Source: a virus. Taken from it: DNA of 49,936 bases. Both the position numbers and the translations under genes were made by a program. Location: positions 1-49,936 of IMG/VR virus record IMGVR_UViG_3300028417_000006; one strand, 5' to 3'. A model generated the notes under the pieces. The model was not told where the DNA came from. It did not search any database and saw nothing but the letters and a program-made list of their open reading frames with translations. Below, piece by piece: positions 9,146-49,936 of the stretch. Numbering within the stretch: position 1 is the stretch's first letter; each line of letters opens with the position of its first letter.

Positions 9146-9446
9146 ACATAGTACAGTTTACGGTATAAGTGATGAGGATTATATAGATGAGTTAAAGCTT
9201 TTAAAGTGTGCTGGTGATGTGTTATCTGCTAGTATAACTGCTTTAGAGGTTGATATAAGACTGTTAGAAGCTAGATACTCTGATATAAGACTTATGTATA
9301 GGAATGAGTTATCCTCTGATTTAGTGCCTGAAATGCAAGAGATTAATGTTAAAGATACTAATGATTTTATATGTCTATTATCATTAATACCAAAGAAGTT
9401 AGTATCTAAAAAGGTTAAATTAAAACGCTTAAAGGCTTTATCATGA
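9129..9446 (+). CDS. hypothetical protein, 105 aa (GTG start)
   Basis: The GTG at 9129 is preferred because AAGGAG sits 6 bp upstream (9117-9122); another in-frame GTG at 9108 has no such site. The gene overlaps the helicase end by 17 bp. The product is helical with leucine-rich heptad-like segments (LKLLKCAGDVLSASITALEV), possibly a coiled coil, and a basic C-terminus. It ends with an ATGA overlap to the next gene. Function unknown. Confidence 0.72.
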   Translation: MQGLYKHSTVYGISDEDYIDELKLLKCAGDVLSASITALEVDIRLLEARYSDIRLMYRNELSSDLVPEMQEINVKDTNDFICLLSLIPKKLVSKKVKLKRLKALS

Positions 9447-9952
9447 ATCTTCAAAATTGGAAACATAATAAAGAACTTTGGCAACAAGTGGAGGCTAATT
9501 ATAGAGATAGTTTAGATAACATTAGCAATAAAGAAGCTAATTTTAGAAACTCTTACTTTAATTTATCAATGGATAGTAAGGCTTTAGGTATGTCACATAG
9601 CTATCTTAAGACAATATCTAATTCTAGTGGCAGGAAGTGGGATTTTCTACAGATACTAGCTGATACACCTATAAAAGCAATTAGGAAGTATGAATATTTA
9701 CAATCTAAAGCCTTGTGTGATTTCAACACATTAACATGGGAGTTACAGGACTCTAACACTATGTCTATATATGATTTTAGTAAGTACTTAAACAAGATAG
9801 GGTTATTCAAATGTAAGAACTCTTTTAGCACCATGAGCTTAAGTATTATTCAAAACAATGTCGTTGCTATGGATATAAATAGATTTTTTACTATTCAGGC
9901 GGTGCTTAGAGCATATCCTAAGTATAAGGAGTTACACAATGAAACACAATGA
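9443..9952 (+). CDS. hypothetical protein, possibly HTH DNA-binding
   Basis: A 169-aa helical protein, coupled by ATGA overlap to the gene before it and overlapping the nuclease after it by 14 bp. Residues around 47-75 (SKALGMSHSYLKTISNSSGRKWDF) are spaced like a helix-turn-helix of the phage-repressor type, and the surface looks basic. This is only a by-eye resemblance. Context (between helicase and nuclease) would fit a DNA-binding accessory factor or a transcription regulator. Confidence 0.75.
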   Translation: MNLQNWKHNKELWQQVEANYRDSLDNISNKEANFRNSYFNLSMDSKALGMSHSYLKTISNSSGRKWDFLQILADTPIKAIRKYEYLQSKALCDFNTLTWELQDSNTMSIYDFSKYLNKIGLFKCKNSFSTMSLSIIQNNVVAMDINRFFTIQAVLRAYPKYKELHNETQ

Positions 9953-37819: not shown

Positions 37820-38185
37820 ATGAATGCTTTTTGGTTAAAACAATGGCTAGATTTAGGGCTTTTAGCAAGTTCTGCTGAAATTGGTTGGAAAACATACGGG
37901 GTGAGGTGGGTTGATAAGAGATTAAAAATCAATTCTTCTTATAAGGAAGTTTTTGACAATAATGAAGCTGTAGATGAACTATCTACTAAGGAGCTAACTA
38001 GGGATAGTGCAAAGTTAGTAGCTGGGTTGGTATCTGATATGTTAAACAGTGATAGCCTTAGTATAGCTGATTTAAAAGATTTAAACAGCATGAATAAAGA
38101 TATACAGAATAGCTTTATTAAAGGTGCTATTGTTAGCAATGTCGATGTTGATTTAGAGAAGTTTAGAAGGAGCTTAGTATGTTAG
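37820..38185 (+). CDS. Terminase small subunit (putative)
   Basis: A 121-aa helical protein immediately upstream of, and overlapping by 7 bp, the large terminase gene. Segment 1-60 could hold the DNA-binding domain; 60-115 are oligomerisation-type helices (SKELT.., SIADLKDLNSMNKDIQNSF). There is no strong sequence motif, so the call rests on gene order, length and helical make-up. AGGAGG stands before the ATG. It would recognise the packaging site, perhaps in the adjacent gap. Confidence 0.7.
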   Translation: MNAFWLKQWLDLGLLASSAEIGWKTYGVRWVDKRLKINSSYKEVFDNNEAVDELSTKELTRDSAKLVAGLVSDMLNSDSLSIADLKDLNSMNKDIQNSFIKGAIVSNVDVDLEKFRRSLVC

Positions 38186-39915
38186 TTAGTGAGGGTCAGC
38201 TTGTTGATATGATACCTAGGGTGCGTGACTATGTAGATATCTTTTATACTGTACCTAGTAGTGTTCAGGAGTTAAAAGAGCGTTACTTAGTTAGTAAGTT
38301 ATGGCGTTTAAATAATCTTTATAGTGTAGTTGGTAAACAAGTTGATGGTATAGATAGTATAGTATCTTTTAAGATGAACTATGCTCAACTTAGCCTTTAT
38401 GCAAGTTTATCTCGACATCCTAGGTTAGTATGTCTTAAAAGTAGACAGCGTGGTATTAGTACAGTTACAGTTCTTATGTTAGCTGATGATATGTTTACTC
38501 TACCTCACTTAAACTGTGGTATTATAGCTCAAGACCAAATTGCAGGTGACACCCTTAAGGATAAGATTAGTATAGCGTGGGATTATCTTGATGATGGTAT
38601 TAAAGGCTTCTTTGACATTGATGTAGTAATCGATAATAATAGTGAGTTTGGTATGAATAATGGTAGTGGTTGTATGGCTAAACTATCTTTTAGGTCTGGT
38701 ACACTTCATAGATTAGTCTGGACTGAGGTAGGTAAAATTTGTGCAACTGATATGGCTAGGGTTACAGAAACTAAGTCTGGTTCTTTACAAACTATACTTG
38801 GTACACTTGACAATATTGTTGTACTAGAATCAACTGCTCATGGTGATAATGACTTTAAAGATACCTTTGACTTAGCTAGTAAGATGGCCGATAAGCCTAT
38901 TACTAATAAGATGTACCGACCAATCTTCTTTAGTTGGTTAACTGATACAGACTGTACAAGTGATGTAGAAGTATGGGATGATAGAGTAGAAAAAATAGTT
39001 GCTGACATAGAGCGTGAATATAGCCTTTATATAGGTACAATTGCTTACAAAACTCAGATAGGTAACTTTATCTTTAGCGAAGGACATCAATATAAGCTTA
39101 GTAACACTCAGCGAAATTGGTTAGTCGGAGTCTTATTTGAGATGAACTTTGACTTAGAGTTGTTTTATCGTGAATATCCTCATACTCCTGAAAGTGCTTT
39201 TTATGTTAGTAATGAGAGTTTATGGTATAAAGACGGGTTAGCCTTACTTAAAAGAAGCAATCGATTATGTTTTGATAAAGGCTCTTATGATGGTTTAAGT
39301 GCGTTGTACAACCCTGATTATGAGGTGTTTTGTTTTATGGATATAGGTAGTACAGATTTATGGTACTGTGGTTATGTTCAGATAATAGACAATGGTGATG
39401 TTGATATGTTTGGTAATCCTCAATGGGATTATTTTATATTAGATGTCGACTTTGCTAGTTATGAGAAAGTTCCTTACTTTAATGATTTAATTAGAAGTAA
39501 ACCTTTTGAAGTTACTAAGTTATTCCTCCCTCACGATGGTGTACATGAAAGAGCTGAGGGTAACTCTATTGAAACTCAGTTTAGAGATTTTGGGTGGGAT
39601 GACATTGATATCATTCCTAAGACTACTATTTTAACAGGTATACTCAATGTGCGTAGAAAAATGTCTAGCCTTTATATAGATATGATATTTGCTGGTGATA
39701 TATTTGACAGGCTTAATGACTACAAGAAGAAGTACAATAACAAGTTGCGTAAATATGAGGCTGTACCTGTACACGATGATGCTAGTCACGGTGCTGATAT
39801 GGTACGATACCTTATGCAATCTCCAGAGTCTTGTAGATTAATCCATCAACATTCTAAGTTTAATAAAAACTTAAACTCTTCAAATGATACTTCAAGTAAT
39901 TCCTTTAGTGTATAA
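38179..39915 (+). CDS. Terminase large subunit (packaging ATPase/nuclease)
   Basis: A 578-aa terminase. The ATPase domain has the Walker A-like KSRQRGIST (87-95) typical of terminases, and a Walker B-type strand ending RLVWTE (E183). The RNase H-like nuclease domain has D388 in FMDIGSTD, D453 in LPHDG, and D540 in HDDASHGADMVRY. All three nuclease acids are present. It drives DNA into the procapsid and cuts concatemers. It ends in a Ser/Asn-rich tail. A hairpin follows 10 bp after the stop. Confidence 0.95.
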   Translation: MLVSEGQLVDMIPRVRDYVDIFYTVPSSVQELKERYLVSKLWRLNNLYSVVGKQVDGIDSIVSFKMNYAQLSLYASLSRHPRLVCLKSRQRGISTVTVLMLADDMFTLPHLNCGIIAQDQIAGDTLKDKISIAWDYLDDGIKGFFDIDVVIDNNSEFGMNNGSGCMAKLSFRSGTLHRLVWTEVGKICATDMARVTETKSGSLQTILGTLDNIVVLESTAHGDNDFKDTFDLASKMADKPITNKMYRPIFFSWLTDTDCTSDVEVWDDRVEKIVADIEREYSLYIGTIAYKTQIGNFIFSEGHQYKLSNTQRNWLVGVLFEMNFDLELFYREYPHTPESAFYVSNESLWYKDGLALLKRSNRLCFDKGSYDGLSALYNPDYEVFCFMDIGSTDLWYCGYVQIIDNGDVDMFGNPQWDYFILDVDFASYEKVPYFNDLIRSKPFEVTKLFLPHDGVHERAEGNSIETQFRDFGWDDIDIIPKTTILTGILNVRRKMSSLYIDMIFAGDIFDRLNDYKKKYNNKLRKYEAVPVHDDASHGADMVRYLMQSPESCRLIHQHSKFNKNLNSSNDTSSNSFSV

Positions 39916-39924
39916 CCTCTATAA

Positions 39925-39953
39925 TACCCCTATAAAATTCATCTTTAGGGGTA
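39925..39953 (+). terminator. Hairpin after terminase, possible terminator
   Basis: TACCCCTA (39925-39932) pairs perfectly with TAGGGGTA (39946-39953) across a 13-base loop. A weak AAATTTAAA tract follows instead of a clear U-run, so termination efficiency is uncertain. Confidence 0.55.
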
Positions 39954-40341
39954 AATTTAAACAATCTCCATCTCTTTGATTCATTATATTCCTTAACAAT
40001 TCTCTTCCTCTATGGCTAAATTTACTAATATAATACTATTAAGTTTTCTTTAAGCTTACTAAATTAAAAATAAAATTTTTTAGATATAGCCTTTATGTAG
40101 ACAGCTACTTAGTAAAGGATTAAGCTAACTCTAAGTAGTATAAAATTAGTGATTTATTTAAGTGTGTACTCCACAACCTCTCACTACCCTTCCCTTGCCC
40201 TACCCACCTACCACCCCAACTAGTTCAGCAACTTGATAATGACATTCAATTTCAATTAGTAGTGGCGATTAAACTATTTGTACTTAATAGGTAGGGATTA
40301 AACTATTTAACCTTGCAATAGAGGAGAGTTATTCTTAAGTA

Positions 40342-40433
40342 GTAACACATTAAGCTTATTATACCTTGTAACACATTAAGCTAGTTATACTTATGTTAAT
40401 GTGTTACTACTTTTAAGCATTTTACTGTGTTAC
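40342..40433. repeat. GTAACACATTAA elements, direct and inverted
   Basis: Copies at 40342 and 40368 (both GTAACACATTAAGCT, direct), an inverted copy TTAATGTGTTAC at 40396-40407, and a partial inverted copy at 40424-40433. The same core recurs in the 63-bp arms to the right. They look like protein-binding iterons. Confidence 0.85.
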
Positions 40434-40562
40434 TCATTAAAGGTAGTTGCAAATAGTTTAATTTCAAATAGTTTAATATTAAATATCTTTCATTTCTTTA
40501 GTTAAAGGATAAAGACCCTTATTTTTGTTATCGATACTAATTTGACAAGGTGGTTAAAAGTA

Positions 40563-40983
40563 GTAACACATTGATGGTTTTCTGTAACTAGGTTAATGTG
40601 TCACTTATCTGGGTCGATGTGTTACTTCGTATCGATAGTAAAAGCCTATTTTTTTATTTGTTACTAACTGATTTTTCTTAAAATTTTAATTATAAACACA
40701 TTAAACACATAAACACATAAAAAAGTGGTTATATGCAAGAGAAAAATGGTTTAAGGTTAAATTAAGGTTTAAATAAAAAAAAAGTATATAAATAGCAAAA
40801 GCGATGTGTTTATGTGTTAGATGTGTTTGGCATTTTTGAACACTACTAATTTGACAAGAGAAGACCCCAAAAAGCAGGGGTTACATACCTATCAAAATAA
40901 GGGTCTTTTTTAGCTAACAGGTAACACATTAACCCAGATAAGTGACACATTAACCCCGATACAGAAAACCATCAATGTGTTAC
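40563..40983. repeat. 63-bp inverted repeats flanking 295 bp
   Basis: The left arm 40563-40625 and right arm 40921-40983 are inverted copies with 58 of 63 matching positions by my alignment. Each arm starts GTAACACAT and ends ATGTGTTAC, so each is itself bounded by inverted copies of the GTAACACATT core, and each has a third core (GTGACACATTAACC) inside. The 295-bp spacer is AT-rich and non-coding. Confidence 0.92.
40695..40828. repeat. Nested 25-bp inverted repeat of ACACAT units
   Basis: Left copy 40695-40719 (AAACACAT, then AAACACATAAACACAT) and right copy 40804-40828 are reverse complements with 23 of 25 matches. They lie inside the spacer of the 63-bp repeats, giving a two-level nested symmetry centred near 40765-40775, with an A/T-only stretch (AAATAAAAAAAAAGTATATAAATA is broken up at 40770-40794) near the centre. 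Confidence 0.88.
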
Positions 40984-41085
40984 CCTCTTTACTAACCAAT
41001 TTCACCCATCCAACAATAATAAAAGGCTATATCTTCTTAGTATTTCCGCAGGTAATGAAATATACTATACAAATAAATAAAAATA

Positions 41086-41396
41086 TTAAACTATTAGAAT
41101 ATTAGAATATTAAACTATTTGAATATTAAACTATTTGAATATTAAACTATTAAAACATTAAACATACTTAATATTAAACTATTCAAACATTAAGCTATTC
41201 AAATTAATTAAACATACTTAATATTAAACTATTAGAATATTAAACTATTAGAATATTAAACTATTAGAATATCAAGTATATCAAATTAATCAAACTATTA
41301 AAACATTAAACTATTAGAACATTAAGTATATTTAATATTAAACTATTAGAATTATTAAGTATCTTTAACATTAAATATATTAAATATTAAACTATT
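41086..41396. repeat. TTAAACTATT iteron array
   Basis: Eleven exact TTAAACTATT copies start at 41086, 41110, 41126, 41142, 41174, 41224, 41240, 41256, 41306, 41338 and 41387, with degenerate copies between (41190, 41289). Spacings are often 16 bp or multiples near it. Two further direct copies lie at 40269 and 40298, and two inverted copies (AATAGTTTAA) at 40452 and 40467. The array is almost pure A/T, so easily melted. Confidence 0.9.
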
Positions 41397-41464
41397 CAAA
41401 GTTAAAGATATTGTATCTACCTAAACCAATAATATAACCCCACCATAATAATAAGGCTATATCT

Positions 41465-41512
41465 CCATGGTGTAGCTTAAGAAATTAACAACTAAATAAA
41501 CCTACACCATGG
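41465..41512. repeat. 11-bp inverted repeat at end of early unit
   Basis: CCATGGTGTAG (41465-41475) and CTACACCATGG (41502-41512) are exact inverted copies with 26 bp between, starting 16 bp after the stop of the last early leftward gene. No U-tract follows on the minus strand. It may be an RNA 3'-end stabiliser or an operator. Confidence 0.75.
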
Positions 41513-41527
41513 ACTCTCAAATACCAA

Positions 41528-45344: not shown

Positions 45345-45444
45345 CACGCAATCGCATATGGTATAAATCTCAAAGTTTTAGTAGAGTTAGTTAACACACG
45401 CAATTGCATCTAGTATAAATCTCAAAGTTTTAGTAGAGTTAGTT
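45345..45444. repeat. Two 48-bp direct repeats
   Basis: Copies 45345-45392 and 45397-45444 match at 45 of 48 positions, with a 4-bp gap (52-bp period). Each contains CACGCAAT-x-GCAT at one end and TATAAATCTCAAAGTTTTAG in the middle. The second copy ends 5 bp from the stop of the 102-aa gene. Likely regulator-binding or RNA elements. Confidence 0.92.
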
Positions 45445-45759: not shown

Positions 45760-48672
45760 TTATTTCTCCAACTTTTTAATTATGTCTTCTATAGTATATA
45801 AATCTACTGTTTTGCCTCTTGTACCAAACTTACTAACATTTCCTGCAACGGTATCAGCATTAAGAAGGATAGGCTTACAAACCTTATCTCTACTATACTT
45901 CACAGCAGGCTCACCTAAGAAGCGTTTAAACTTACCAATATCTAACTTATTAGCTATAGCATAACCCCTTTTCTCTCCAAACATTTTTATACATATCTGC
46001 TGATACCAACCTGCAAAACCGAAGCCTCTTCTAGTAGTGTTAATTGTAGGTATGTATAGATAACTAGTGTCTTTTATGTTAGCCTCTTCTAAGTAACCTA
46101 TATAACCATCTGTACCGCCTAAGTTGTTAGGTTTAAGTGGGTGGTATACTGTACAGTAATCTATATCTCCCATAAGCTTTGACTTGTAATCCATAATAAA
46201 ACCTAAAGCTTCAAGGTTAATAGTTTCTGAATCAGTTAGAGATGTTACTAAGGCTAAGTCACCATTTTCATCTTCTATCTCTTCTAATATACCCGAGTAT
46301 TTAACTTTAAGTACTTGTTTAAACTCAGAAAACAAGGCAGTTACATCGGAGATAGCTAGTTTACTAATAAGTGCCTTCCACTCAAAGTATCTATCACAGA
46401 TAAAATACTGTACTGCTTTATCTAAGTAACCTGCATCAGTATCACATAGCTTGATAAACTCACTATCTAGTAAGTCGTCACTGTAGTTTATAGTAAACAA
46501 CCTATTTCGTATTTCATAACTTTGGTCGCCTAAAAGTAATGCTTCATATGCCCTACTACCCCACATAACCTTAGCATAGGCTGGGAATGATTGATTTATT
46601 AAACCTTTAACATTAAGTGTCACATCAAGCCTAGTAAGATTACCTAAAAAGGCTGATACTCTTATATTTTTCATTACTTTAGGACTTAGTTCATCACCTG
46701 TAACCCATAATCTGTCAGTTAATTCTTCTATGCTGTAAGGGTATAAACCATCGTAACCAAACAAGTCAGCTACATGAGTATCAGAGTTGCTGAGTCCTAC
46801 TTTGTGAAAGTTAGTTAAGATGGCACTCTTACCAGAACCAGAAGCTGAGGTAATAGCAAAGGCTGTATGTCGTTGGTTGGATACTCCATTACTATAAAGA
46901 TTAAGCATACTAAAAAGAATAAGTAAGTCAACTATACTGTTAACCTCAAAGCCTTTAAGCATAACTGAACCCCTAGGTAACTTCCAATGATTAACAAAAG
47001 CTTTTACAATCTCACCATATCTAGGATTACTATGTACTCCCTCCTTCAATAGCATTTTACGATATTGAAAAGTAGGCTCATCAAAGCTATTATTCACGAT
47101 ATACTCACTCCTACACCCAGAGGCATAAGATATCTTAAGACTATTAGTGGCTAACTGAGTTGGTTCTAAAGCTGATGCTGTATTAATAACAGTTACAAAC
47201 GATGTGTATGTAGAAACTATCTCAACTATTTTCTTAACTACTAAACCTTTACTAAACCCTTTATCACCACTAACTTGATAGAACTCTGTATAGTCAGGTT
47301 TAAATAGTGAGCCATACCATGTACTTTGCAAGGACTCATTCTGTTTACCTAGTACAACTGTAGTTTCTCTACTACCTGCAAGGTTTACATTGTGTATCAT
47401 TACTGCACTATTACTAGCCTTATTAACCATCATACATAGAATATACAAACAGTTTTCATCTATTAACTTACTAAAAATTCTCTCTTTAGCAAAAGCCTCT
47501 TTTTCATACCAATCATCAAGCTTTGCACCCTCCATGTTACATATAGACTCAGCAAAGAGTCTTACAAGGCTAACTGTAACACTTGCTACTATACCTCTAA
47601 GTATCTGAGCTGTAGAGTCAGGGTTATTAGCATGGAGGAAATACTCCCACTCAGGTAATACAATGTTACGGTACTCACCATAAGTAGAAGTACAAGTGTT
47701 GGAACCACAGTATAACCTAGTACGATTACCTGAGGTTTTAAGTAACCAAGCGTATCGCTCATCTGCTGAGTCAGTGTGTAGGTGAGAAGTAGGACATTTA
47801 CATAGAACCCTCTGATTACCTAGTAACGCACTAGATACATCACCAATACATACATCACCACGCTCTTTAAGTCGTCTGAACTCATTCTTATTAAGGCTAT
47901 TGCTGGGGTCATCGTATATCTCTGTTAAGGTAGTACCGCAAACTGTTTTAACAATAACCTCATCTTCTTTAGGAGCGAAGAGTAACATATCCGTATGAAA
48001 CTGTAAAGGATTACTAAATTGATAAGGGAATAGTTGAGAGTCTATAGTTAATTGTCCATCCTTTAGTAAGCCCTTAGTAGTTAAGGCTATTTCTACATCA
48101 GTAGCTGTAACTTTATAAACCTCTTTAGCTTTTTCTTTATCCTTAGGAGGAGCTTCAAAGTAATCAAACACTTGACCCTCTATAGGTATAGTAGGAGCAA
48201 AGAACCTAGCCACGCTTCTACTAGCCTTATCCACTGAAGGAATTCTAAAAGTTTCAACTACCCAGTTAACTACCGCTATATAACCTTCAACATCAGGTAT
48301 ACCAGTACAAGGGATTAGTAACCTATATTTGTACCCATTAAGTAAATAGTTTTGACTAGGTATAGTAAAGGCTGTAAAAGGCATAGTTCTTATACAAGCT
48401 GTTAACTCTATAAGTATGTCGTGAACACTGTCTATATCTATTATAATTAAATCACCAACTCCTACTATACTATTTTTATCTCTATGCCCACCGTTATATA
48501 TAAAGGGGCTTACTGCACTAAATAGTAAATCATTGTATACTACATTTATATCATCAGTTACTACATCAGCGAAGCCGTACGAAGTAGCCTTACCGAAGCA
48601 CATCTCATTAGCACTAACTCTAAAGGAGTTCTTCCTACTACCTTTTATTTGTGTACTTTTGCTATATCTCAT
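45760..48672 (-). CDS. Primase-helicase: AEP-like primase plus SF3 helicase
   Basis: A 970-aa replication protein. The N-terminal part (about 1-170) has an archaeo-eukaryotic primase-type core: D79-I-D81 after a hydrophobic strand, SQN (106-108), YRLLIP (116-121) and D148. A cysteine/histidine cluster (C291, C293, H297, H299, C322, C327) could bind zinc. The C-terminal third is an SF3-type ATPase: Walker A SASGSGKS (K615), Walker B WVTGDE (D660, E661), a sensor strand and EIRNRL with likely arginine finger. It should open DNA and make primers for the family A polymerase. Promoter-like DNA and AAAGGATG lie just upstream. Confidence 0.85.
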   Translation of the reverse strand: MRYSKSTQIKGSRKNSFRVSANEMCFGKATSYGFADVVTDDINVVYNDLLFSAVSPFIYNGGHRDKNSIVGVGDLIIIDIDSVHDILIELTACIRTMPFTAFTIPSQNYLLNGYKYRLLIPCTGIPDVEGYIAVVNWVVETFRIPSVDKASRSVARFFAPTIPIEGQVFDYFEAPPKDKEKAKEVYKVTATDVEIALTTKGLLKDGQLTIDSQLFPYQFSNPLQFHTDMLLFAPKEDEVIVKTVCGTTLTEIYDDPSNSLNKNEFRRLKERGDVCIGDVSSALLGNQRVLCKCPTSHLHTDSADERYAWLLKTSGNRTRLYCGSNTCTSTYGEYRNIVLPEWEYFLHANNPDSTAQILRGIVASVTVSLVRLFAESICNMEGAKLDDWYEKEAFAKERIFSKLIDENCLYILCMMVNKASNSAVMIHNVNLAGSRETTVVLGKQNESLQSTWYGSLFKPDYTEFYQVSGDKGFSKGLVVKKIVEIVSTYTSFVTVINTASALEPTQLATNSLKISYASGCRSEYIVNNSFDEPTFQYRKMLLKEGVHSNPRYGEIVKAFVNHWKLPRGSVMLKGFEVNSIVDLLILFSMLNLYSNGVSNQRHTAFAITSASGSGKSAILTNFHKVGLSNSDTHVADLFGYDGLYPYSIEELTDRLWVTGDELSPKVMKNIRVSAFLGNLTRLDVTLNVKGLINQSFPAYAKVMWGSRAYEALLLGDQSYEIRNRLFTINYSDDLLDSEFIKLCDTDAGYLDKAVQYFICDRYFEWKALISKLAISDVTALFSEFKQVLKVKYSGILEEIEDENGDLALVTSLTDSETINLEALGFIMDYKSKLMGDIDYCTVYHPLKPNNLGGTDGYIGYLEEANIKDTSYLYIPTINTTRRGFGFAGWYQQICIKMFGEKRGYAIANKLDIGKFKRFLGEPAVKYSRDKVCKPILLNADTVAGNVSKFGTRGKTVDLYTIEDIIKKLEK

Positions 48673-48694
48673 TATTACATCCTTTCATAATACT

Positions 48695-48700
48695 ATTATA
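48695..48700 (-). promoter_or_regulatory. Putative -10 for primase-helicase
   Basis: TATAAT on the minus strand, in an AT-rich setting (TATAATAAAATTATACTATAAT), 23 bp before the ATG at 48672. No clear -35. The leader would be very short, with the ribosome site AAAGG at 48682-48686. Confidence 0.5.
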
Positions 48701-48803
48701 GTATAATTTTATTATAAAGAGCTTAAAGTTATGTGTATTTTAAGACACTTTTTCAAAATATGTGAGTAGATATACCATGGAAACGCTCACAGAGGCATAA
48801 AAT

Positions 48804-48824
48804 ATTAAATATATTGTATTTAAT
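48804..48824. promoter_or_regulatory. 21-bp palindrome, candidate operator
   Basis: ATTAAATA-TATTG-TATTTAAT is a perfect 8-bp inverted repeat with a 5-bp centre. It is directly followed by GTGAGC, and GCTCAC lies at 48785-48790, giving a second, wider inverted pair. The position, midway in a divergent promoter region, suits a regulator that controls both early units. Confidence 0.6.
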
Positions 48825-48883
48825 GTGAGCATATTAAATATTAAGTACTCATTACAGATATGAGCTATAACTCCAGCTTGTAT

Positions 48884-48925
48884 AATGTATATAAATACCA
48901 TAAGTTTCTTAAAATAAAATTAAAT
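48884..48925. repeat. 42-bp element, copy 2
   Basis: The counterpart of 45216-45258: AATGTATATAAATAC, ATAA, then CTTAAAATAAAATTAAAT. Non-coding, same orientation. Confidence 0.75.
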
Positions 48926-48984
48926 TCTAGTATCTTAACAACTTTTGTAATAGTGTCAACTTTAAGCTACTTTTAATAAATTTA

Positions 48985-48993
48985 TGATATAAT
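48985..48993 (+). promoter_or_regulatory. Extended -10 promoter for rightward DNA-metabolism unit
   Basis: TGATATAAT gives a consensus TATAAT (48988-48993) with the extended TG. No convincing -35 is present, but T/A-rich tracts lie upstream. The ATG of the repeat protein is 46 bp downstream, with AAGGAG at 49028-49033. Confidence 0.7.
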
Positions 48994-49039
48994 TATAATC
49001 TAGTAATTGAAAGATTACATAAAATTTAAGGAGCATTAA

Positions 49040-49936
49040 ATGCTAAATATTCAAGGTGTTAAAACAATCAATGTATCAGCTAACTTAGCGAGTCTATTCG
49101 CAGAAAAACAATCATGGTCAACTGTACCTAATGGTACTAGCTTCACTATGCTATTTGCTAGATTATCACAAAGAGCTGGAGGTTATCAGGATAAGGATTT
49201 TATAGTTGCTGAGGGTGTATACATACCTGCTGATGTTACTACAATAGAAGAGGCTATATCTAAAGCTGTACCTGTACAAATGTATACAAATACAGTTATA
49301 AACAATAGAGTAGAAGATAGGAGTATGAGAGTTGGTAAAGTCTACACTATAACAAAAGCCTTTTCTAAAGGTGATGTAGTCAATGGTAAAGCTATGGCGT
49401 ACCATGGTTTTGATATGAGTGTATTGGAGAGTGAAGAGTTAGAGAGAGGTCTTGCGGAAATTTGGAATACTACCCAGATGGATAAGATAAATCCTGAAAT
49501 GAGATTTACTGTTACTAAAGATGAGATAGGTAATACCCGTGTATTTGAGTCTATAGCAGGTGAAACTCCTCATGACAATGCACCTGCTGTTGCTCAACCT
49601 GCTGTCGCTCAACCTGCTGTCGCTCAACCTGCTGTCGCTCAACCTGCTGTCGCTCAACCTGCTGTCGCTCAACCTGCTGTCGCTCAACCTGCTGTCGCTC
49701 AACCTGCTGTTGCTCAACCTGCTGTCGCTCAACCTGCTGTTGCTCAACCTGCTGTTGCTCAACCTGCTGTTGCTCAACCTGCTGTCGCTCAACCTGCTGT
49801 TGCTCAACCTGCTGTCGCTCAACCTGCTGTCGCTCAACCTGCTGTCGCTCAACCTGCTGTTGCTCAACCTGCTGTCGCTCAACCTGCTGTTGCTCAACCT
49901 GCTGTCGCTCAACCTGCTGTTGCTCAACCTGCTGTC
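49040..49936 (+). CDS. 5' part of wrap-around AQPAV-repeat protein
   Basis: Open to the right end of the contig with no stop; it continues at 1-198 in frame to make a 364-aa protein. Residues 1-180 form a unique mixed domain ([16 protein letters not shown], a [16 protein letters not shown] strand pair, then an acidic helix [13 protein letters not shown]). From about residue 185 it is pure AQPAV repeat: 23 units here and 10 more after the join. AAGGAG lies 6 bp before the ATG. As the first gene of the replication unit with a beta-rich domain on a long flexible arm, it could be an ssDNA-binding or scaffold-like replication protein, but no family motif supports this. Confidence 0.88.
49592..49936. 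repeat. 15-bp tandem repeat (coding), right part
   Basis: Exactly 23 units of GCTCAACCTGCTGTY run to the last base of the contig. The only variation is C/T at the last position (synonymous Val codons). The first seven units all end in C; later ones mix C and T. It joins the array at 1-164. Assembly across such an array is unreliable, so the true copy number may differ. Confidence 0.97.

What the first reader, a model, noticed from the sequence alone, without database searches (positions are those of the whole stretch)
40563..40983. Nested large inverted repeats in the 1.6-kb gap: candidate replication origin
Two 63-bp arms (58/63 matching) flank 295 bp that contain a second, 25-bp inverted repeat, giving two-level symmetry. 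Each arm is bounded by inverted GTAACACAT cores and has a third core inside. The spacer centre is nearly all A/T. Iterated binding sites plus an easily melted centre is an origin-like or resolution-like design, and I know no standard phage origin with this exact layout.
Basis: partly seen in the sequence, partly recalled or inferred. Interest (0 to 1): 0.75.

Follow-up and report, generated by a model that had tools for sequence, protein, structure and literature searches.

The report
Nested inverted-iteron replication origin candidate
A phage carries, just after its DNA-packaging gene, a symmetric set of short repeated DNA words around an easily melted centre; the same design with different words recurs at the same place in dozens of distant relatives, so it is probably where these viruses start copying their DNA.

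Summary
The repeat is real: 58/63-bp arms around 295 bp, score 48 against a maximum of 22 in shuffles, with a 23/25-bp inner repeat and ten GTAACACATT-like cores in 40342-40983. The phage is a distant relative (TerL 31-35%) of KF-1-like podoviruses. In 32 of 48 relatives the 2.5 kb after TerL holds a significant spaced inverted repeat, against 4 of 71 regions before TerL. In all six complete relatives this region holds the genome's strongest one. Their arms consist of iterons phased 8-9 bp apart, and the spacer is AT-rich (median 86 bp). The window's INNER repeat (25-bp arms, 85-bp spacer) fits this design; the 63-bp outer arms are an elaboration. The likely initiator is the 970-aa protein, a divergent primase/SF3-type helicase. 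Best explanation: a bidirectional replication origin (about 0.6), close to the pRN1 stem-loop origin and to P4 iteron origins. A packaging junction is the main rival; a separate dyad next to TerL is a better candidate for that. GC skew is uninformative. No experiment exists. A test of whether iterons follow primase or terminase leaned to primase but was not robust. New variant of a known kind; the family-wide pattern is the interesting part.

The parts
38179..39915 (+). Large terminase gene (TerL), left neighbour of the gap
   Evidence: PHROG terminase match; 31-33% identical to TerL of KF-1-like phages
39916..41527 (.). 1.6-kb noncoding gap between convergent genes that holds the whole element
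   Evidence: No ORF above 42 aa lies wholly in the repeat part of the gap; gene table
40342..40433 (.). Left palindromic cluster of four GTAACACATT-like cores (two forward, two reverse, 26-bp steps)
40563..40625 (+). Left outer arm, 63 bp, three cores (40563 forward, 40595 and 40616 reverse)
   Evidence: 58/63 match to right arm; score 48 vs shuffle maximum 22
40921..40983 (-). Right outer arm, 63 bp, three cores (40921 and 40942 forward, 40974 reverse)
40694..40718 (+). Left inner arm: three AAACACAT iterons at 9- and 8-bp steps; the family-conserved part
   Evidence: 23/25 match to right inner arm; phasing as in relatives
40719..40803 (.). AT-rich spacer, 85 bp, 22% GC; putative unwinding core or loop
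40804..40828 (-). Right inner arm: mirror iterons
40537..40549 (+). CTAATTTGACAAG, copy 1 of a direct repeat (second copy 40846-40858); role unknown
40846..40858 (+). CTAATTTGACAAG, copy 2 of the direct repeat
41080..41396 (.). 16-bp AT-rich tandem array (AAACTATTAGAATATT, about 19.5 copies, 74% matches)
45760..48672 (-). 970-aa protein P0001: probable primase plus SF3-type helicase, candidate origin binder
   Evidence: Homologue in L019's contig at 31%, E 4e-18; that homologue matches DUF5906 and N4-like primases; own motifs read by eye

Best explanation
The region is the phage's replication origin. A phage initiator, most likely the 970-aa primase/SF3-type helicase, binds the inverted clusters of 8-10-bp iterons and assembles on both sides of the AT-rich core. 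It melts or extrudes that core, whose inner arms can form a hairpin with an 85-nt loop. It then primes synthesis so that two forks leave in opposite directions, extended by the phage family A DNA polymerase. The outer 63-bp arms and the left four-core cluster add binding sites for loading or copy control. Shown here: the anatomy, its non-randomness, and its conserved position and architecture in relatives. Inferred: protein binding, melting, priming and bidirectionality.
For: Repeat far beyond chance. Spaced inverted repeats beat all 60 shuffles in 32 of 48 post-TerL regions against 4 of 71 pre-TerL regions. They are the strongest of the genome in six of six complete relatives. Arms are iterons phased at 8-9 bp around an AT-rich spacer, median 86 bp, 26% GC against 35% for the region. 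Relatives encode a DUF5906 primase-helicase whose helicase part matches the NrS-1 primase structure, and the window encodes a distant counterpart. pRN1, a primase-SF3 replicon, needs a 21-nt-stem, 58-nt-loop element to replicate (PMC4234260). The gap is convergent in the window and poor in promoter-like sites, which disfavours an operator. With raw scores, iteron similarity follows the primase rather than TerL.
Against: No experiment or read depth. GC skew only follows gene strand. The iteron-primase correlation vanishes with length-normalised scores. 16 of 48 relatives show no significant spaced repeat by this test. Post-TerL DNA is largely noncoding while pre-TerL DNA is coding, which may inflate the contrast. 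P0001's function rests on a chain of homology and motif reading; its structure prediction failed.
Confidence: 0.6

Rival explanations
1. Packaging or concatemer-junction region. In T7-like phages (general knowledge) the genome end with short tandem repeats lies after the large terminase gene; the inverted repeat could be a terminase-binding or concatemer-processing site.
For: Position directly after TerL; tandem arrays in many post-TerL gaps; many contigs end shortly after TerL and two isolate records start there.
Against: A different dyad, TAATAAATTTATTA and variants, sits within 400 bp of TerL in 38 of 75 relatives against 7 of 256 control pieces, and the isolate records start next to it, not at the inverted repeat. 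Iteron similarity does not follow TerL once the primase is accounted for. AT-rich spacing is not needed for packaging.
Confidence: 0.17
2. Transcription control region: iterons are operators of an early repressor or activator, and the hairpins include terminators of the converging operons.
For: In most relatives the repeat lies upstream of the early genes. A terminator-like hairpin lies at 40864-40881.
Against: In the window the neighbouring genes converge on the gap, so no neighbouring gene starts there, yet the element is at its largest. Promoter-like sites are fewer than in shuffles, 6 against 13.7.
Confidence: 0.12
3. Partition, recombination or resolution site, or neutral expansion of repeats in an unconstrained gap.
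For: Multiple cores in both orientations; the gap accumulates tandem repeats in many relatives.
Against: No recombinase or partition protein among the proteins searched. Neutral repeats would not be expected to keep inverted, 8-9-bp-phased arms around an AT-rich core at one genomic place across phages with about 30% identical proteins.
Confidence: 0.11

Closest known systems
pRN1-type stem-loop origin of AEP-SF3 replicons (PMC4234260; also proposed there for Bordetella phages BIP-1/BPP-1)
   Same: Inverted repeat of about 20-25 bp with a loop of tens of bases; replicon encodes a primase plus SF3 helicase; stem sequence not conserved between relatives while the structure is.
   Different: Here the arms are phased iterons and the window has a second, 63-bp level; pRN1 is reported to lack iterons. 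In pRN1 the stem-loop directly follows the replication gene; here it follows TerL, kilobases from the primase gene.
Phage P4 origin recognised by alpha protein (as described in PMC4234260)
   Same: Short repeats recognised by a primase-helicase that also unwinds and primes.
   Different: P4 alpha has a bacterial (Toprim) primase; the relatives here carry a DUF5906/NrS-1-like type. No second distant site was established here.
NrS-1 phage primase-polymerase recognition sites (PMC7102993, PMC8718748)
   Same: Helicase part of the relatives' primase matches the NrS-1 primase structure. NrS-1 has two copies of its 8-nt recognition sequence, one per strand, proposed as a possible origin.
   Different: NrS-1 motif is TTTGGTTA, a single pair; here there are many iterons of other sequences. 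The NrS-1 genome itself was not examined.
Post-TerL repeats of KF-1-like phages (KF-1, Amaethon, VPMS1, PH1)
   Same: Same genomic position, inverted iterons, AT-rich spacer.
   Different: Different iteron words (AAATCC, ATACC and others) and mostly one level of symmetry; not annotated as an origin in the records read.

Membership tests
pRN1-type stem-loop origin | Stem of about 21 bp with a loop of about 60 nt | tested here: met
   Window inner repeat 25 bp / 85; KF-1 23 / 45; Amaethon 21 / 63; hairpin z-scores -4.3 to -4.9
pRN1-type stem-loop origin | Replication protein with AEP primase and SF3 helicase domains | tested here: inconclusive
   Relatives: DUF5906, NrS-1 primase match. Window: only through a homologue that is borderline for DUF5906 (27.8 bits in the genome search, 23.4 in the direct scan, cut-off 27.6)
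pRN1-type stem-loop origin | Stem-loop directly 3' of the replication gene | tested here: not met
   Window: about 4.8 kb beyond the primase gene with other genes between; relatives: after TerL, kilobases before the primase gene
pRN1-type stem-loop origin | Element needed for replication | not testable with these tools
   Needs a deletion or plasmid replication assay
Iteron origin of the P4 type | Several short repeats next to an AT-rich stretch | tested here: met
   Ten cores plus six inner copies around a 22% GC spacer
Iteron origin of the P4 type | Toprim primase fused to SF3 helicase (alpha protein) | tested here: not met
   P0001 gives no Toprim match in Pfam, PHROGs or NCBIfam; its homologue matches an N4-like primase
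T7-like concatemer junction | Physical genome end or terminal repeat at the element | tested here: inconclusive
   Contig ends and isolate record starts cluster just after TerL, near a different dyad; no read data
KF-1-like (Kafunavirus-related) podoviruses | Homologous TerL, portal, capsid and DNA polymerase with TerL followed by the repeat-rich gap | tested here: met
   TerL 30-33%, portal 27-29%, capsid 28-32%, polymerase 24-28%; early block on the opposite strand and primase unlike theirs, so a distant relative, not a genus member

The most novel reading that the evidence does not exclude
KF-1-like podoviruses and their distant kin share an undescribed origin class: inverted arrays of 8-9-bp-phased iterons around a roughly 85-bp AT-rich loop after TerL. 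It combines the pRN1 stem-loop and P4 iteron designs, its iteron sequence changes with the primase-helicase, and the window carries its most elaborate, two-level form.
Probability: 0.35. Interest if true: 0.68.

Novelty: new variant of a known kind. Interest (0 to 1): 0.5.

Why it matters
Origins are unknown for most phages outside a few models. A position and architecture that recur across dozens of phages give a directly testable origin prediction for cultured members (KF-1, IW-1, Amaethon, VPMS1, PH1). They would also show how primase/SF3-helicase replicons recognise their origins when the binding words change completely between relatives.

Tried and rejected
The GTAACACATT dyad pattern has no match in IMG/VR. 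Single-protein searches with TerL, polymerase, capsid and P0001 found almost nothing; only a family alignment worked. Direct profile comparison of P0001 with the relatives' primases failed, and its AlphaFold model was useless (pLDDT 30). The AT core looked like L019's core by eye and by BLAST, but a shuffle test rejected that (score 35 vs shuffle maximum 42; other AT-rich gaps scored higher). GTAAC clustering in L019, the only other genome found with a P0001-type primase, is significant alone (p 0.002) but is only the tenth-best 5-mer there: kept as suggestive. Fork-gene co-orientation puts the repeat in the top 11-16% of positions and GC skew in the top 12-41%, both following gene strands: not decisive. 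The iteron-versus-primase test was positive with raw scores and null when length-normalised. A MITE or other transposon was dropped because no target duplication is seen at the arm ends. A protelomerase-type telomere was dropped because it needs a continuous palindrome (general knowledge). No Rfam family matches the gap. An accession fetched as NrS-1 from memory turned out to be phage MSW-3 and was not used.

Full report
WHAT IS THERE. An ungapped search scores it 48; the best chance repeat in shuffles of the gap or of the whole window scored 22. Inside lies a 25-bp repeat (40694-40718 / 40804-40828, 23/25) around 85 bp of 22% GC. The word GTAACACAT occurs eight times in 40342-40983 and once in the rest of the 49.9 kb. 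Allowing one mismatch over ten bases, there are ten cores: four in a palindromic cluster at 40342-40433 and three in each outer arm. The inner arms carry three shorter AAACACAT-like copies each. A 16-bp AT array follows at 41080-41396.

CONTEXT. The record is a viral contig whose two ends lie in the same 15/30-bp tandem repeat, so it is probably a circularly permuted genome broken at that repeat (inference). TerL, portal, capsid and family A polymerase are 24-33% identical to those of Edwardsiella phage KF-1, Dickeya phage Amaethon, Vibrio phage VPMS1, Pseudoalteromonas phage PH1 and two uncultured phages. In these phages TerL is followed by a partly noncoding stretch, the early genes and a primase-helicase that carries DUF5906 in the two scanned and whose helicase part matches the NrS-1 phage primase structure. 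In the window the early genes lie on the opposite strand, so the gap is convergent and no neighbouring gene starts in it.

COMPARATIVE TEST. A TerL family search gave 80 relatives. In the 2.5 kb after TerL, a spaced inverted repeat beat all 60 shuffles in 32 of 48 cases; before TerL it did so in 4 of 71. In the six complete relatives, the strongest spaced inverted repeat of the whole genome is in the post-TerL region; in VPMS1 it is seen by wrapping the record start. The arms differ in sequence, for example AAAATCCAAAAAATCC..89 bp..GGATTTTTTGGATTTT in L017, or ATATAATACCTATAATACTAAAA in KF-1, but share a plan. Iterons are phased at 8 or 9 bp (all nine arms with strong self-similarity; shuffled arms have no preference) and face an AT-rich spacer with a median of 86 bp and 26% GC. 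Some relatives have several levels, such as L082 with forward AAATCC iterons on one side and reverse ones on the other. The window's inner repeat fits: 9- and 8-bp phasing, 85-bp spacer. The outer arms are therefore the special feature, the inner repeat the conserved one. The regions after TerL are largely noncoding and those before it coding, which is a caveat for the 32/48 versus 4/71 contrast.

THE PROTEIN. The 970-aa product of 45760-48672 has an aspartate motif and a YRLLIP stretch reminiscent of archaeo-eukaryotic primases, a Cys/His cluster and Walker motifs (motif reading is inference). No database names it. One 50-kb contig (the one holding L019) has a homologue (31%, E 4e-18) that matches DUF5906 at the border of its cut-off and, in its N-terminus, the DNA primase of N4-like phages (E 1e-3 to 5e-3). 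A primase plus SF3-type helicase is therefore likely, but rests on a chain of homology.

MECHANISM. Most likely the initiator binds the inverted iterons, assembles head-on across the AT core, melts or extrudes it and primes two forks. The published pRN1 origin, for a primase-SF3 replicon, is a 100-bp stem-loop with a 21-nt stem and 58-nt loop, and its authors proposed the same for some phages (PMC4234260). As single strands the inner repeats of the window, KF-1 and Amaethon fold far better than shuffles (z -4.9, -4.8, -4.3), as any inverted repeat would.

RIVALS. Position after TerL suggests a packaging junction. But a different dyad sits next to TerL in 38 of 75 relatives against 7 of 256 control pieces, and two isolate records begin just past it, so packaging has its own candidate. 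Iteron similarity followed the primase (r 0.30, p 0.003; partial on TerL p 0.0055) and not TerL once the primase was accounted for (p 0.84). With a length-normalised score there was no signal, so this is only a lean. An operator is less likely because the gap is convergent and poor in promoter-like sites. GC skew follows gene strand and cannot decide.

VERDICT. The origin reading is well motivated comparatively (0.6) but untested. It is best filed as a new variant of stem-loop/iteron origins of primase-helicase replicons, with the family-wide pattern being the valuable part. The paper searches made here turned up no description of an origin for this phage group, but the library holds open-licence papers only.

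Noticed in passing
L005 (KF-1) 2190-2236; first 400 bp after TerL in relatives; window 48974: A TAATAAATTTATTA-type dyad, often repeated at 30-70-bp steps, follows TerL in 38 of 75 relatives against 7 of 256 control pieces. Records of two Edwardsiella phages begin just past it. Candidate packaging or terminus site; the window has it only in the divergent gap 48673-49039.
   Followed up: partly
48695-48730 and 48958-48993: A second spaced inverted repeat (score 18, spacer 227 bp, 25% GC) in the divergent gap between the 970-aa gene and the repeat gene.
   Followed up: no
1-206 and 49040-49936: Both contig ends lie in the same 15/30-bp tandem repeat coding an AQPAV-like repeat protein; the record is probably a circularly permuted genome broken at this repeat.
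   Followed up: partly
L019 7666-10367: 2.7-kb noncoding gap after TerL with repeated palindromes (CGTATTTTACCCCTTAAC...GTTAAGGGGTAAAATACG) and a GTAAC cluster at 9287-9700, in the only other genome found with a P0001-type primase.
   Followed up: partly
40085, 41022, 41585, 41732, 42779, 43732 and others: AAAGGCTATA recurs (4 forward, 5 reverse copies in the window), several of them in or near noncoding DNA; possible phage promoter or leader element.
   Followed up: no
45345-45444: 52-bp tandem duplication between genes of the early block.
   Followed up: no
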